A stretch of DNA of 64,000 nucleotides, from positions 1-64,000 of the forward strand of contig CALDUT010000016.1 in assembly GCA_937924775.1 (NCBI GenBank). The letters run 5' to 3'. The first letter of the stretch is position 1. Each line of letters begins with the position of its first letter. This document shows, piece after piece, positions 46,601-64,000 of the stretch. The position numbers were made by a program, and so were the translations under genes. The notes below the pieces were generated by a model, which worked only from the letters and a program-made list of their open reading frames with translations, ran no database searches and was not told the DNA's origin. The stretch comes from an uncultured Gemmata sp. GTDB lineage: Bacteria > Planctomycetota > Planctomycetia > Gemmatales > Gemmataceae.

Positions 46601-48238
46601 TTAGTAGAGGTCGTCGTAGTTGCCGCCGGCGGCTCCTTTCTTTTCTTCCTTCTTTTGCTCCTCGGCGATGAGGGCGTCGGAGGTGAGAAGCAGTGTGGCG
46701 ACGCTGGCCGCGTTTTGCAGGGCGCTGCGGACCACCTTGGTGGGGTCGATGATGCCGCGTTTCATCAGGTCGGTGTATTCGCCGCTGCGTGCGTCGTAGC
46801 CGAAGTTCTTGTCGCTGTTGGCGAGAACTTCGTTGATGACGACGTTGCCATCTTCGCCAGCGTTTTCGACGATTTGTTTGATCGGTGCGCGGCAGGCCCG
46901 CACGATGATGTTGTAGCCGATTTGTTCATCGTCGGTGAGGTCGCTGCTGGGTTTGAGGCCTTGGCTGGCTCGCAGCAGGGCGGTACCGCCGCCGGGCAGA
47001 ATGCCCTCTTGGTGCGCGGCTTTGGTGGCGTGCATCGCGTCTTCGACGCGCATCTTCTTTTCCTTCACTTCGCTTTCGGTGGCCCCGCCGACGTTGATCT
47101 TGGCCACACCGCCGGAGAGTTTGGCGATACGTTCGCTGAGTTTTTCCTTGTCGTAATCGCTGGTGCTCTTTTCCAATTCCTTCTGGATGCTGGCGATGCG
47201 GGCTTTGATCGCGTCTTTCTTGCCGCCGCCTTCGATGATCGTGGTGTTTTCCTTGTCGACCTTGATCTTCTTGGCTTTACCGAGCTGATCGAGGGTGACA
47301 GTTTCGAGTTTCAGGCCCAGATCTTCGAAGATCGCTTCACCGCCGGTGAGGATAGCGATGTCCTGGAGCATGGCTTTGCGGCGATCACCGTAGCCGGGGG
47401 CCTTCACCGCGCACACCTTCACTTGGTAGTTCGACTTGATGACGTTGACGACCAACAAGGCCAGCGCTTCGCCATCCACTTCTTCGGCGATGATCAGAAG
47501 CGGCTTGCCTTCACGAACGACTTTCTCCAGAAGCGGCAGAATATCGCGGGCGGCACTGATTTTCTTCTCGTAGACGAGGACGTAGGCATCTTCGAGGATG
47601 CATTCCATCGTCTCGGGATTATTGATGAAGTACGGCGACAGATAGCCGCGGTCGAACTGCATCCCTTCAACGAATTCGTAGGTGGTTTCGAGGCTCTTGC
47701 CTTCTTCCACCGTGATGACGCCGTCTTTGCCGACTTTGTCCATCGCTTCGGCGAGTTTGCGGCCGATGTCGGCATCGCCATTGGCAGCGACGGTGGCAAC
47801 GTGTTCCAAATCTTGTTTGCCTTTCACCGGGATGCTCATTTCCTTGAGCTTGGCGACAATCTCTTCAACGGCTTTATCCATGCCGCGCTTCATGAGCATG
47901 GGATTGGTGCCCGCGACAACAGCTTTCAATCCTTCGTTGAAGATGGCTTCCGCCAACACCGTTGCGGTCGTGGTGCCGTCGCCGGCGACATCGGAAGTCT
48001 TGGACGCGACTTCCTTGACCATGGCCGCGCCCATGTTCTCATAGTGGTCGGGCAGTTGGATTTCCTTGGCCACGGTGACACCGTCTTTGGTCACCGTCGG
48101 GCTGCCGAAGGATTTTTGGATGATGACGTTGCGGCCTTTAGGCCCCAGTGTGACCTTGACGGCCTTGGCCAGTTTGCTGATCCCGCGTTTGATGGCGTCG
48201 CGGGCTTCTTGGTCGAACGCGATTTGCTTGGCGCTCAT
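46601..48238 (-). CDS. groEL: 60-kDa chaperonin GroEL, paralogue 1
   Basis: This 545-aa protein folds client proteins in a double-ring cage with GroES. It has ATP-site D87 in [11 protein letters not shown] and the hydrolytic Asp in [12 protein letters not shown]. The apical region [16 protein letters not shown] keeps the Tyr and Phe that bind substrate and GroES. The C-terminus ends in NYDDLY and lacks the Gly-Gly-Met tail. It is 66 bp downstream of groES1, the standard order, and is followed by a strong terminator. A GAGGATCAGGA site precedes the ATG. A sigma-54-like promoter lies upstream of groES1. Confidence 0.97.
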
Positions 48239-48304: not shown

Positions 48305-48598
48305 CTATTCGATGACGCACAAAACGTCGCCTTCGTGCATCAGCAGCAGTTCGTCGCCGGTGGCGCGATCTTTGAATTCGTCGCCCGCCCACGAGGTGAA
48401 CAGCACTTTGTCGCCCACCTTCAATTGCAGGGGGGTGCGGGTGCCGTCCTTTTGCAGCTTGCCAGGACCGACCGCCAGTACTGTTCCGCGTTGGGGTTTG
48501 TTCTTCGCAGTATCGGGTAGCAGAATGCCGCCGGCAGTTTTGGCTTCCGCCGCTTCCCGACGCACCACGATCCGGTCGCCGATTGGTTTCAGGCCCAT
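48305..48598 (-). CDS. groES: Co-chaperonin GroES, paralogue 1
   Basis: This 97-aa protein is the lid of the GroEL cage. It has [29 protein letters not shown], with the mobile loop (about 16-32) that contacts GroEL, and a C-terminal ELLLMHEGDVLCVIE. A GGAG site lies 7 bases before the ATG. It is first in the groES1-groEL1 operon. Confidence 0.97.
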   Translation of the reverse strand: MGLKPIGDRIVVRREAAEAKTAGGILLPDTAKNKPQRGTVLAVGPGKLQKDGTRTPLQLKVGDKVLFTSWAGDEFKDRATGDELLLMHEGDVLCVIE

Positions 48599-48648: not shown

Positions 48649-48664
48649 TGCAAGAAGCGTGCCT
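48649..48664 (-). promoter_or_regulatory. Candidate sigma-54 promoter of groES1-groEL1
   Basis: On the minus strand the sequence AGGCACGCTTCTTGCA matches the sigma-54 -24/-12 consensus (TGGCACG-N4-TTGCA) at every position except the first T. GG and GC are 10 bases apart, as required. It would start transcription about 40 bases before the groES1 ATG. Sigma-54 promoters need an enhancer-binding activator; no binding site or activator gene is seen here. Confidence 0.65.
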
Positions 48665-48791
48665 GGATCGCGTAATATGAAGGAAGTGATTGTGAAATAA
48701 GGATTTGCGTAAAAAATTTCTGTCGGTTGCTTCGCGTAATTCTGTCAGGAAACCCCGACGTCGGGCGGGTGTGACTGCCGCTTTGACAGGT

Positions 48792-57548: not shown

Positions 57549-58088
57549 TCATTGTTCGCTAGCCACAACGACCGAGGCCGGACGCAGGACACGATCGTGC
57601 AGAAGAAAGCCGTGCTGCAGCACCTGCACCACCTGCCCCGGCTGGAACTGGGTGCCGGCTTGCTGCATGACCGCCTGGTGCAGATTGGGGTCGAAGGCGC
57701 TGCCTGGGCCGACGTCAATCCGCTGAATCCCATGCCGTTTGAAGGCTTCGAGAAACTGGGAGGCCGTGGCCGCGACTCCAGTGGCCAGAGGCCCGTTATC
57801 GCCGGCCCGTTTGGCGGCTTCCAGGGCGCGGTCGAGATTATCGAGGGCCGTGAGCAGATCGCGGGCCAACGGTTCGATGGCGAACTTGCGTTCGATCTCC
57901 ACGTCACGCAGAAGGCGTTTGCGGGCATTGTCGAAATCGGCCAGCATCAGCTTGTAGTTATTCAATTCTTGTTCGCGGGCGGCTAAGGTGGCCCGAAGGG
58001 TATCGAGTTCGCTGGCCGGTGGGTGTTCGACGGGTACCGGTTCTTCCACCGGAGGCGTGGGCGGCATTTCCGGTCGTTCATCGGACAT
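57549..58088 (-). CDS. grpE: Nucleotide exchange factor GrpE
   Basis: This 179-aa protein has an acidic, Pro/Glu-rich head, a long coiled coil (LRATLAAREQELNNYKLMLADFDNARKRL) and the beta-wing domain (FNPLxHQAVMQQ-type, here FDPNLHQAVMQQ, then VLQHGFLLHDRVLRPASVVVA). GrpE releases ADP from DnaK. It is 62 bp after dnaJ on the same strand. No dnaK gene is in the window. Confidence 0.95.
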   Translation of the reverse strand: MSDERPEMPPTPPVEEPVPVEHPPASELDTLRATLAAREQELNNYKLMLADFDNARKRLLRDVEIERKFAIEPLARDLLTALDNLDRALEAAKRAGDNGPLATGVAATASQFLEAFKRHGIQRIDVGPGSAFDPNLHQAVMQQAGTQFQPGQVVQVLQHGFLLHDRVLRPASVVVASEQ

Positions 58089-58150
58089 GGGTTGTACCTA
58101 CGGAATGTTATCTTCAATGGATTTTCTTTAGGGGATTTTCGTATCGCAGG

Positions 58151-59305
58151 TTATTTCTTCTCTTCTTTTGGAGGGTTCTCCCCGCTGACGAGATCCTTGA
58201 GTTTGCCGAAAATTCCTTTTTTGGGCGTAGGGGGGCTGAGGCCCTCCAGCGCCGCCAATTGCCGGTACAGTTCTTCTTGTTCCGGGGTGAGGTTCGTTGG
58301 GGTTTCGACAATCAATTGCACCAGCAGATCGCCGCGGCGTTTGGGATCGTCGAAATGGGGCATGCCTTGACCGGGAACGCGGACCACGGTGGTGTGCGTT
58401 TGGGCCCCCCGGGGCACTTCCACAAGGATTTTCTCCCCGGTCAAGTTGGTCATTTCGATAGTTCCCCCCAGCGCCGCCCGCGCAAAGGAAATGGGTTGGC
58501 GGCAGATGAGGTTGTGACCGTCGCGTTGGAAGGTCTTGTGGTCGCGAATCTGGATCCGGAGTTCCAGATCGCCACGGGGAGCGCCCGGATCGCCGGCGTG
58601 GCCGCGGCCGGGATAGGTGAAAACCGCGTGGTTGGGAACACCCGGGGGGATATTGGCCGTGACCTCGTCCTGCACCGTGACGCGGCCCGAGCCGCGGCAG
58701 GTGGGGCAGGGATCGGTGATGACGGTACCACGGCCGCCACAACCCCGGCAGCGCATGCGGGTGGCGATGCCAAAGCCGGTATTGAGAACTTCGTAGCCTT
58801 GGCCGCGGCAGCGGCGGCATTGGGTCGGTTGGGTGCCGAGTTTGGCACCACTGCCGCCACAATCGCGGCAGTTCTGTTCACTGGGAACCGTGAAGGTCTT
58901 GGTGCAGCCGGTTGCGGCTTCGACCAATTCAATTTCCAGCAAAGCGGCAATGCTTTCCCCGTGGCGGGGCCCCCGCGCACGACGGGGACCGCCGCCGAAG
59001 AAGCTACCGATCAGATCGCCAAAAAAGTCGCCCAAATCGACGCCCACGCCTTCCATGCCGCCGGGGGCAAACGAGCTATCGACCCCCGCATGACCGTAGC
59101 GGTCGTAGCGGGCCCGTTTGTTGGGGTCGCTCAGCACCGAGTACGCTTCATCCACTTCCGCGTACTTGATTTTGGCTTCCTCATCGCCAATGTTCCGATC
59201 TGGGTGGTAACGCTTGGCGAGGGTGCGATACGCTTTGGTAATCTCCGCTTCGGTGGCCGTGCGTGATACGCCGAGGACTTCGTAATAGCAGCGTTTCTCA
59301 GCCAT
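58151..59305 (-). CDS. dnaJ: Chaperone DnaJ (type I)
   Basis: The ATG at 59305 with a GAGGAA site gives 384 aa; the track ORF starts 14 codons earlier inside the intergenic hairpin. It has a J domain with HPD (AKRYHPDRN), a Gly/Phe-rich stretch (GDFFGDLIGSFFGGG), four zinc repeats (CRDCGGSG, CRRCRGQG, CRGCGGRG, CPTCRGSG) and C-terminal substrate-binding domains. DnaJ delivers clients to DnaK and stimulates its ATPase. It follows groEL2, with a 116-bp gap holding a long hairpin. Confidence 0.95.
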   Translation of the reverse strand: MAEKRCYYEVLGVSRTATEAEITKAYRTLAKRYHPDRNIGDEEAKIKYAEVDEAYSVLSDPNKRARYDRYGHAGVDSSFAPGGMEGVGVDLGDFFGDLIGSFFGGGPRRARGPRHGESIAALLEIELVEAATGCTKTFTVPSEQNCRDCGGSGAKLGTQPTQCRRCRGQGYEVLNTGFGIATRMRCRGCGGRGTVITDPCPTCRGSGRVTVQDEVTANIPPGVPNHAVFTYPGRGHAGDPGAPRGDLELRIQIRDHKTFQRDGHNLICRQPISFARAALGGTIEMTNLTGEKILVEVPRGAQTHTTVVRVPGQGMPHFDDPKRRGDLLVQLIVETPTNLTPEQEELYRQLAALEGLSPPTPKKGIFGKLKDLVSGENPPKEEKK

Positions 59306-59335
59306 CGGTTCCTCAGGCGAGTTTCCAGGAAAACA

Positions 59336-59401
59336 CGAAAAGTGCAAAATGGGGAAGACACCACTGGTAAGCGGGGTCTTTTCCTCATTTTACACTTTTC
59401 G
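59336..59401 (-). terminator. Long hairpin between groEL2 and dnaJ
   Basis: Two arms of about 24 bases (CGAAAAGTGcAAAATGgGGAAGAC and its near-perfect complement) pair with one mismatch, one G-T and a small bulge, around a 16-base loop. On the minus strand the stem is followed by TGTTTTCC. It may be an intra-operon terminator or attenuator, or an RNA-processing or stability element that sets different levels of GroEL2 and DnaJ-GrpE. Confidence 0.6.
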
Positions 59402-59421
59402 CGGCCAACGGTGGACTCCGC

Positions 59422-61107
59422 TTAGGCGATCGCACCGACAACAGGTTTCTTCTTCTCATCCTCATCCAACCGGGTGACCAACACCTCGGTGGTGAGCATC
59501 AGCCCCGCGATACTGGCGGCGTTCTGCAGAGCGTTGCGGGTGACGCGGAGCGGGTCGATGATCCCGGCTTTGAACATGTCTTCGTACTCGCCGGTGTTGG
59601 CGTTGTAGCCGATGTTGGGGTTCTTCTCGCCGCGAGCAATCACTTCGGCGGCAATCACCGCGCCATCGGCACCGCCGTTTTCGGCGATGGTGCGAATCGG
59701 CTTGGCCAGTGCCCGTGCCACAATTTCGGCCCCGACGCGTTCATCATGTTTGAGCTTTTCGGCCAAGGCCTCGACCGTCGGGATACATCGCAACAGAGCC
59801 ACGCCGCCACCAGCCACAATCCCTTCAGCCACCGCGGCGCGGGTCGCGTGCAGGGCATCCTCGACGCGGCCTTTGGTTTGCTTCATTTCCGCTTCGGTGG
59901 AAGCCCCGACCTTGATAATCGCCACGCCACCGCCGAGTTTGGCGAGCCGTTCGGAGAATTTCTCCTTGTCGTACTCGCTTTCGGTTTGGTTCATCTGCGT
60001 GCGGATGGTGTCCATACGGGCTTTGATGGCCGCTTGCCGTTCTTTGTCGGGTTCCACGATGATCGTGGTGCTTTCTTTGTCCACGATGACCTTGTTGGCC
60101 GTACCGAGCAGTTTGAAGACTTTCGGTTCGGGCCGGGCTCCCCGTTGTTGCTCTTTGGCGCTGGGTTCTTCCATGCTATCGAGGGCGATCCCGCGATCCT
60201 CGCTGATGAAAGTACCGCCGGTGAGAACGGCGATGTCTTCCATCATGGCTTTGCGGCGATCCCCGAAGCCGGGCGACTTGACCGCACAGACTTCGAGCAA
60301 GCCACGCAGCCGGTTCACCACCAACACGGCCAAGGCTTCGCTTTCAACGTCGTCGGCGACGATCAGAAGCGGCTTGCCCGCGCGAGCCACCGCATCCAAC
60401 AGTGGCAGCATTTCGCGAACATTCGAGAGCTTCTTCTCATACAAGAGCACCAGTACGTTCTCTTGTTCCCATTTCAGATCCGGGGTGTTAACGACGAAGT
60501 ACGGCGAGATGTAGCCTTTGTCGAACTGCATCCCCTCAACAAATTCCTGGACGGTTTCGGAGGTTTTGCCTTCCTCGACGGTGATAACGCCATCGCGGCC
60601 GACTTTCTCGAAGGCTTCAGCCATCATTTCGCCGATTTTGGGGTCGTTGTTGGCCGAGATGGTAGCGACCTGCTTCATTTCATCCTTCTTGGAGACGGGT
60701 TTTTTCAGCGTCTCCTCGAGGTATTTGACGGCCGCGGCCACGGCTTTGTCGATACCGCGTTTGACGGCCATCGGGTTGGCCCCCGCGGTGATGTTCCGCA
60801 GGCCTTCTTGGTAGATGGCCAAGGCCAGGACGGTGGCCGTGGTGGTCCCGTCGCCGGCGATATCGGAGGTTTTCTGGGCGACCGCGTTGACGAGCTTGGC
60901 CCCCATGTTCTCGAACGGGTCGGGCAGTTCAATTTCTTTAGAAACGGTGACGCCGTCTTTGGTGACGGTCGGCCCGCCGAAGGATTTTTCGATGATGACG
61001 TTGCGCCCGGTGGGGCCGAGAGTCGAGCCAACGGCACGGGCGAGTTTCTCCGCACCGGCCAACAGTTTCTTCCGGGCTTCGTCAGTATAGAGCAATTGTT
61101 TGGCCAT
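59422..61107 (-). CDS. groEL: 60-kDa chaperonin GroEL, paralogue 2
   Basis: The ATG at 61107 (GGAG site) begins [18 protein letters not shown] and gives 561 aa. The ATP site [11 protein letters not shown] (D86) and the hydrolytic Asp in [12 protein letters not shown] are intact. The apical [20 protein letters not shown] differs from paralogue 1. There is an insertion near 335-350 ([17 protein letters not shown]). The C-terminus ends [11 protein letters not shown], with no GGM tail. It lies 124 bp after groES2 and is followed by the dnaJ-grpE pair. Its sequence differs enough from paralogues 1 and 3 to suggest a specialised client set. Confidence 0.96.
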
Positions 61108-61231
61108 GGTGTCTCCAGATCCCCGTGGGCCGTGGGTGGCTACCGTTGCAGCGGATGAAGGCGTGACGCCTGGTGAACTCCGCTTGCGGACGATGCCGGC
61201 CAACCGCGGCCGTGGTTAGGTGGTAAGTGAG

Positions 61232-61543
61232 TTATTTAACGATTTTGCCCAGGATTTCACTTTCGCGCAGAATCTTGTATTCCTTGCCGTTGACTTCCAC
61301 ATCTGAGCCGCTGTATTTGCCGAACAGCACGGTATCGCCGACGGCCACCGCGAGCGTATGGCGGGTGCCTTTGTCGGTGAGTTTGCCGGGACCAACTGCG
61401 ATCACCTTGCCTTGTTGCGGCTTTTGTTTGGCAGTATCGGGCAGAAGGATGCCACCGCTGGTCTTTTCTTCCGCTTCGAGCGGTTCGACCACAACGCGAT
61501 CATCGAGCGGTTTGAGAGTCAATTGCTTGTCACTTTTGGCCAT
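61232..61543 (-). CDS. groES: Co-chaperonin GroES, paralogue 2
   Basis: This 103-aa protein has [38 protein letters not shown] with the mobile loop, and a C-terminal [15 protein letters not shown]. It sits between groEL3 (138 bp upstream) and groEL2 (124 bp downstream), so it can serve either. GGAG lies upstream of the ATG. Confidence 0.97.
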
Positions 61544-61681
61544 GATGGTTTACTCCGGTGGTTTGGGAGCCGAGAGCTGAGGTCTCGGCGGAACAATCGC
61601 TCCAAGGTTGGATACTGTGTTGAGTTTGCGTCTGGGTCCATTGGGATTGGGGAACCCCGGCGGACCGGGAATTGTGAAGCT

Positions 61682-64000
<2,319 letters not shown>

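What the first reader, a model, noticed from the sequence alone, without database searches (positions are those of the whole stretch)
48649..48664. Sigma-54-type promoter in front of groES1-groEL1
AGGCACGCTTCTTGCA fits the -24/-12 consensus with the exact 10-base GG-GC spacing and lies about 40 bases before the start codon. Sigma-54 control of one groESL copy is known in Bradyrhizobium. It would put paralogue 1 under an activator-dependent signal instead of heat shock.
Basis: partly seen in the sequence, partly recalled or inferred. Interest (0 to 1): 0.6.

Follow-up and report, generated by a model that had tools for sequence, protein, structure and literature searches.

The report
Sigma-54 promoter controlling chaperonin operons
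The short motif is a real, widely conserved sigma-54 promoter in front of a groES-groEL chaperonin operon of a planctomycete, and the same promoter with a matching upstream activator site precedes the other chaperonin operons too, so it looks like a shared control switch for these protein-folding machines rather than a peculiarity of one copy.

Summary
AGGCACGCTTCTTGCA lies at 48664..48649 on the minus strand, with exact GG-N10-GC spacing, 50 bases before groES1 (ATG 48598). The motif alone is weak evidence: 29 near-matches in the window, 32 expected. Conservation makes the case. A good site lies within 200 nt of groES1 in 45 of 50 genomes of the class, and further upstream in four of the other five. 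A conserved palindrome, CTGnC-N5-GnCAG, starts 121-125 nt upstream of the site in 34 of 43 regions, with a half-site at 81-84 nt: a two-part activator site. Promoter plus palindrome gave 114 hits in 59 genomes; 50 lie just upstream of a groES, co-oriented (about 0.04 expected). The genome has RpoN and about 12 activators but no HrcA. The other two groES operons, and probably dnaK, share the architecture. So the promoter is supported; "paralogue 1 instead of heat shock" is not. A response-regulator activator sharing an operon with groESL in two relatives is the lead candidate. Sigma-54 enrichment of planctomycete chaperone genes was predicted in 2025 (PMC12316311); I found no report of the enhancer or activator.

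The parts
48649..48664 (-). -24/-12 (sigma-54-type) promoter AGGCACGCTTCTTGCA of groES1-groEL1
   Evidence: Sequence; site scoring >=13/15.5 in 45 of 50 orthologous upstream regions
48742..48748 (-). UAS2, half-site CTGACAG of the enhancer
   Evidence: Half-site starts 81-84 nt 5' of the promoter motif in 27 of 43 relatives
48775..48789 (-). UAS1, palindrome CTGTCAAAGCGGCAG, candidate activator-binding site
   Evidence: Only exact CTGnC-N5-GnCAG in the window; at 121-125 nt from the promoter in 34 of 43 relatives
48684..48709 (-). Third conserved element, CGCAA...ACTT with arms about 22 bp apart, binder unknown
   Evidence: CGCAA fixed about 44 nt and ACTT about 22 nt 5' of the promoter motif; 16 vs 3.6 and 31 vs 11.5 expected of 43
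48305..48598 (-). groES1 (Cpn10, 97 aa)
   Evidence: ORF, Pfam Cpn10
46601..48238 (-). groEL1 (Cpn60, 545 aa)
   Evidence: ORF, TIGR02348 GroEL over its cut-off
63415..63430 (-). -24/-12 promoter CGGCACGCCGATTGCA of the second chaperonin operon
   Evidence: equivalent site found in 17 of 20 relatives' fetched stretches
63505..63519 (-). UAS of the second operon, CTGCCACTCTGTCAC, 89 nt before its promoter motif
   Evidence: palindrome at 88-90 nt in 15 of 20 fetched stretches
63546..63551 (-). Distal half-site CTGCCA of the second operon, 121 nt before its promoter motif
   Evidence: Sequence; same box visible in relatives
57549..63370 (-). Second chaperonin operon: groEL2a - groES2 - groEL2b - dnaJ - grpE
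   Evidence: ORFs, Pfam Cpn60, Cpn10, Cpn60, DnaJ, GrpE

Best explanation
The motif is the -24/-12 promoter of the groES1-groEL1 operon. RNA polymerase with RpoN binds it as a closed complex. An AAA+ activator bound at the palindrome CTGnC-N5-GnCAG about 120 bp upstream and at the half-site about 80 bp upstream opens it when it receives a signal. The same control is laid over the other two groES operons and probably dnaK, so this is a shared chaperone regulon and not a special regime for copy 1. The signal is most likely protein-folding or heat stress. The best candidate activator (about even odds) is the receiver-AAA-Fis-type response regulator at G000:C4:79721-81118, with a histidine kinase gene next to it. 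Shown: the sequence elements, their conservation and fixed spacing, and the presence of RpoN and activators. Inferred: binding, looping, the activator's identity and the signal.
For: Site conserved upstream of groES1 across the class. Tandem UAS at fixed distance from the promoter. 50 of 114 promoter-plus-palindrome hits in 59 genomes lie within 1.5 kb upstream of and co-oriented with a groES. In the own genome the combined pattern occurs twice, both before groES operons, reversed control 0. Second operon has the same parts. dnaK has a site and UAS-like boxes. RpoN present, activators present. HrcA absent. Activator candidate: in 56 of 59 genomes, third gene of the groES-groEL operon in G040 and G041, 7-9 kb from operon 2 in five genus members.
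Against: No transcript, binding or mutant data. The consensus alone is at chance level in the window. The first base of the -24 box is not T. The candidate activator is not next to groESL in most genomes, its own-genome copy has GAYTGS where GAFTGA is usual, and two other activator types are equally widespread among the genomes compared. The heat link rests on R. baltica data only.
Confidence: 0.85

Rival explanations
1. One reading: sigma-54 singles out paralogue 1 for a special, non-heat-shock signal, as NifA does for one groESL copy in Bradyrhizobium.
For: The promoter is real and activator-dependent control follows from sigma-54 biology; copy 1 has the cleanest palindrome in the window.
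Against: All three groES operons carry the promoter and enhancer, dnaK probably too; HrcA is absent; R. baltica chaperonins, in two operons, are heat-induced (PMC2754498).
Confidence: 0.08
2. Two promoters: a vegetative or alternative-sigma promoter supplies basal and heat-shock groES1 transcription, and the sigma-54 promoter adds a second, conditional input.
For: GroE is usually essential, so some expression independent of the activator is expected (general knowledge); a further conserved element lies between the enhancer and -24.
Against: No conserved second promoter stood out in the upstream sequences that were read; not tested systematically.
Confidence: 0.3
3. Chance resemblance to the -24/-12 consensus with no function.
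For: With two mismatches allowed the window has no more matches than shuffled sequence.
Against: Same site at the same place in nearly all orthologues plus a positioned enhancer.
Confidence: 0.01
4. A different activator (L106 type without receiver, L108 FHA-GAF type, or another) drives the regulon.
For: L106 and L108 types are also reciprocal best hits in all three relatives compared; L106 in 53 of 59 genomes with intact GAFTGA.
Against: L106 is never within 20 kb of a groES, whereas the L109 type is in 7 genomes. L108 was not tested for proximity.
Confidence: 0.45

Closest known systems
Predicted sigma-54 chaperone cluster in Planctomycetota and Bacteroidota (PMC12316311, PLoS One 2025)
   Same: Reports predicted sigma-54 promoters enriched before GroEL, GroES, DnaK, DnaJ, GrpE and IbpA genes, concentrated in Planctomycetia; cites sigma-54-dependent groES in Bacteroides thetaiotaomicron.
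   Different: A bulk promoter-matrix enrichment. In the passages read there is no enhancer, no spacing, no candidate activator and no locus-level orthologue comparison.
Bradyrhizobium groESL under sigma-54 and NifA (own knowledge)
   Same: A groESL operon with a -24/-12 promoter and an upstream activator site.
   Different: There one of several copies is tied to nitrogen fixation. Here every groES operon has it, the UAS is CTGnC-N5-GnCAG and not TGT-N10-ACA, and no nif context was seen.
HrcA/CIRCE control of groESL (own knowledge)
   Same: Dedicated control of chaperonin operons through a conserved inverted repeat.
   Different: HrcA is absent from the genome and no CIRCE stands out in the window. 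Control here is inferred to be positive, through sigma-54.
NtrC-type tandem enhancers (own knowledge)
   Same: Two binding boxes roughly 80-125 bp upstream of a -24/-12 promoter, with receiver-AAA-Fis activators available.
   Different: Box sequence differs from the TGCAC-type NtrC box; spacing to the promoter is unusually constant; targets are chaperones.

Membership tests
Sigma-54-dependent promoter | GG and GC dinucleotides 10 bases apart in a TGGCACG-N4-TTGCW context | tested here: met
   only the first T differs
Sigma-54-dependent promoter | RpoN encoded in the genome | tested here: met
   Sigma54_DBD match in a 543-aa frame, E 5.8e-61
Sigma-54-dependent promoter | Upstream enhancer for an AAA+ activator, and such activators present | tested here: met
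   Conserved tandem UAS; 11-12 activators. Binding not shown
Sigma-54-dependent promoter | Transcription starts about 12 nt after the -12 element and needs rpoN | not testable with these tools
   Needs 5'-end mapping and a mutant
NifA-type special groESL copy (Bradyrhizobium) | Only one groESL copy under sigma-54 | tested here: not met
   All three groES operons carry the site
NifA-type special groESL copy (Bradyrhizobium) | NifA box TGT-N10-ACA upstream | not tested
   The conserved palindrome found is CTGnC-N5-GnCAG; no separate NifA-box scan was run
HrcA/CIRCE-controlled groESL | HrcA gene in the genome | tested here: not met
   No PF01628 match; 7 of 14 control genomes match; genome 97% complete
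HrcA/CIRCE-controlled groESL | CIRCE element GCACTC-N9-GAGTGC upstream | tested here: not met
   No window match with fewer than 3 mismatches; count below chance; none before either operon

The most novel reading that the evidence does not exclude
Across the class Planctomycetia, and perhaps the wider phylum, the core chaperones (all groE operons, dnaJ-grpE, dnaK and perhaps an hsp20) form one sigma-54 regulon commanded by a dedicated two-component activator through a conserved tandem enhancer, taking the place of HrcA/CIRCE as the heat or folding-stress switch.
Probability: 0.4. Interest if true: 0.72.

Novelty: new variant of a known kind. Interest (0 to 1): 0.5.

Why it matters
How planctomycetes control their heat-shock genes is unsettled: in R. 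baltica the chaperones respond to heat while the genes for the alternative sigma factors do not (PMC2754498). A conserved sigma-54 promoter with a defined enhancer and a named candidate activator makes that directly testable. It would also be a case in which the general chaperonins, normally housekeeping genes, depend on activator-dependent transcription.

Tried and rejected
(1) Motif counts in the window alone: not significant with 2 mismatches. (2) CIRCE in the window: nothing convincing, count below chance. (3) Autoregulation of the own-genome activator genes: no promoter-plus-UAS arrangement was found upstream of any of them. (4) L106-type activator: as widespread, but never near groES. 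(5) Activator next to groESL in named genomes: none of 80 loci shows the L109 type within the flank held, so the operon in G040/G041 is lineage-specific. (7) Hsp20 genes: one of three has a perfect UAS palindrome 127 nt before TGGCACGCCGCTTGAA, but the -12 reads GA and not GC, so it is left as doubtful.

Full report
Observation. On the minus strand, 48664..48649 reads AGGCACGCTTCTTGCA, with exactly 10 bases between GG and GC and 50 bases to the groES1 start codon at 48598. groES1 and groEL1 are ordinary Cpn10 and Cpn60. As a bare consensus the motif is unremarkable in this window: 29 matches with up to two mismatches against 32 in shuffles. The stricter form [AGC]GGCACGN4TTGCA occurs twice against 0.12 expected, once before groES1 and once before the second chaperonin operon. 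That form was chosen after seeing the relatives, so the main weight rests on conservation.

Conservation. GroES1 relatives were found in 57 of 59 genomes of the class. Of 50 upstream regions read, 45 have a site scoring at least 13 of 15.5 within 200 nt, each with a shuffle probability of 0.02 or less. In the window's genus it is typically GGGCACGnnnnTTGCA. Four of the five exceptions have a site further upstream (L041, L066, L067, L068). G012 has an identical GroES1 protein but diverged upstream DNA (161 of 226 aligned columns identical); the promoter core, the UAS boxes and the stretch next to the start codon are largely kept. Among 80 loci from titled genome records, promoter plus palindrome appears in Gemmata, Isosphaeraceae, Aquisphaera and Pirellulales records. 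A strain of Rhodopirellula baltica has TGGCACGCCTTTTGCT 266 nt before groES-groEL, without a perfect palindrome. The cyanobacterial loci have none.

A tandem enhancer. The palindrome CTGnC-N5-GnCAG (window CTGTCAAAGCGGCAG, 48789..48775) starts 121-125 nt 5' of the promoter motif in 34 of 43 regions, and a half-site (C/T)TG(G/A)CAG starts at 81-84 nt in 27. This is the place and form expected of a binding site for an AAA+ activator. Promoter core plus palindrome gave 114 hits in 59 genomes. Fifty, in 36 genomes, lie less than 1.5 kb upstream of and co-oriented with a groES; my estimate for chance is about 0.04. In the window's own genome the pattern occurs only twice, with none for the reversed control. 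A third element, CGCAA and ACTT about 22 bp apart, sits at a fixed place between enhancer and promoter; its binder is unknown.

The other chaperone operons. The second own-genome hit precedes a receiver-domain gene followed by groES3, and this arrangement recurs in the genus. The operon groEL2a-groES2-groEL2b-dnaJ-grpE in the same window has CGGCACGCCGATTGCA at 63430..63415, CTGCCACTCTGTCAC at 89 nt and a half-site at 121 nt. In 15 of 20 stretches fetched from relatives a palindrome sits at 88-90 nt from such a site. The main dnaK has CGGCACAATCCTTGCT with UAS-like boxes at 111 and 133 nt. Copy 1 is therefore one member of a shared regulon.

Machinery. The genome has one RpoN, 11-12 proteins with sigma-54 interaction domains and no HrcA; no CIRCE stands out in the window. 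Of the own activators, three types have reciprocal best hits in all three relatives compared: L106 (no receiver), L108 (FHA-GAF) and L109 (receiver-AAA-Fis). The L109 type is in 56 of 59 genomes. In two genomes of one genus it is the third gene of a UAS-promoter-groES-groEL-activator operon, and in five genomes of the window's genus it lies 7-9 kb from operon 2. Its own-genome neighbour is a HAMP-HisKA kinase with a Tll0287-like domain. I hold it as the lead candidate at about even odds: adjacency is not general, and the own-genome copy has GAYTGS where GAFTGA is usual.

Interpretation. The contrast 'paralogue 1 under an activator signal instead of heat shock' does not hold. All groES copies share the control and HrcA is absent. 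In R. baltica Cpn10, Cpn60, GroEL, DnaJ, GrpE and DnaK are heat-induced while rpoN, rpoH and rpoE were not seen to be regulated (PMC2754498). That fits a sigma-54 activator switched after translation, but the link to heat in this organism is inference. A second, basal promoter is likely enough that it is kept as a rival that does not exclude the main reading.

Novelty. PMC12316311 already reports predicted sigma-54 enrichment for GroEL, GroES, DnaK, DnaJ, GrpE and IbpA in Planctomycetia, so sigma-54 at planctomycete chaperones is not new as a prediction. The tandem enhancer and its spacing, the third element, the inclusion of all groES operons of one genome and the candidate activator did not appear in the passages I read or in the searches made; subscription papers, including the 2004 in silico study of Pirellula activators, could not be read.

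Noticed in passing
window 48684-48709 and about 63444-63476: Conserved CGCAA...ACTT element with arms about 22 bp apart between enhancer and promoter; a perfect GTCGCAA...TTGCGAC inverted repeat in the second operon. Binder unknown.
   Followed up: partly
L072:615-1425 (G000:C18, about 194.8-195.6 kb): A single-domain response-regulator receiver gene directly upstream of a third groES, under its own sigma-54 promoter and UAS; no groEL was seen downstream in the stretch read.
   Followed up: partly
L109:2722-5979 (G000:C4, about 79.7-83.0 kb): Candidate activator with GAYTGS in place of GAFTGA; several members of the genus have GAYTGS, GAYTGT or GAFTGS while other families keep GAFTGA. Possibly a co-evolved contact with RpoN.
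   Followed up: partly
L321 (G000:C1:307585-307884 region): An hsp20 gene has a perfect UAS palindrome CTGCCAAATTGGCAG 127 nt before TGGCACGCCGCTTGAA, a sigma-54-like site with an altered -12 (GA, not GC).
   Followed up: partly
L207 (G040:C33:11500-18500) and L208 (G041:C332:11500-18500): groES-groEL-activator-mutL-like gene order on one strand behind a sigma-54 promoter with UAS, in two related species; suggests autoregulation of the activator there.
   Followed up: yes
window 59422-63370: One operon holds two different groEL genes flanking a groES, followed by dnaJ and grpE; three or more GroEL types coexist in this genome.
   Followed up: no
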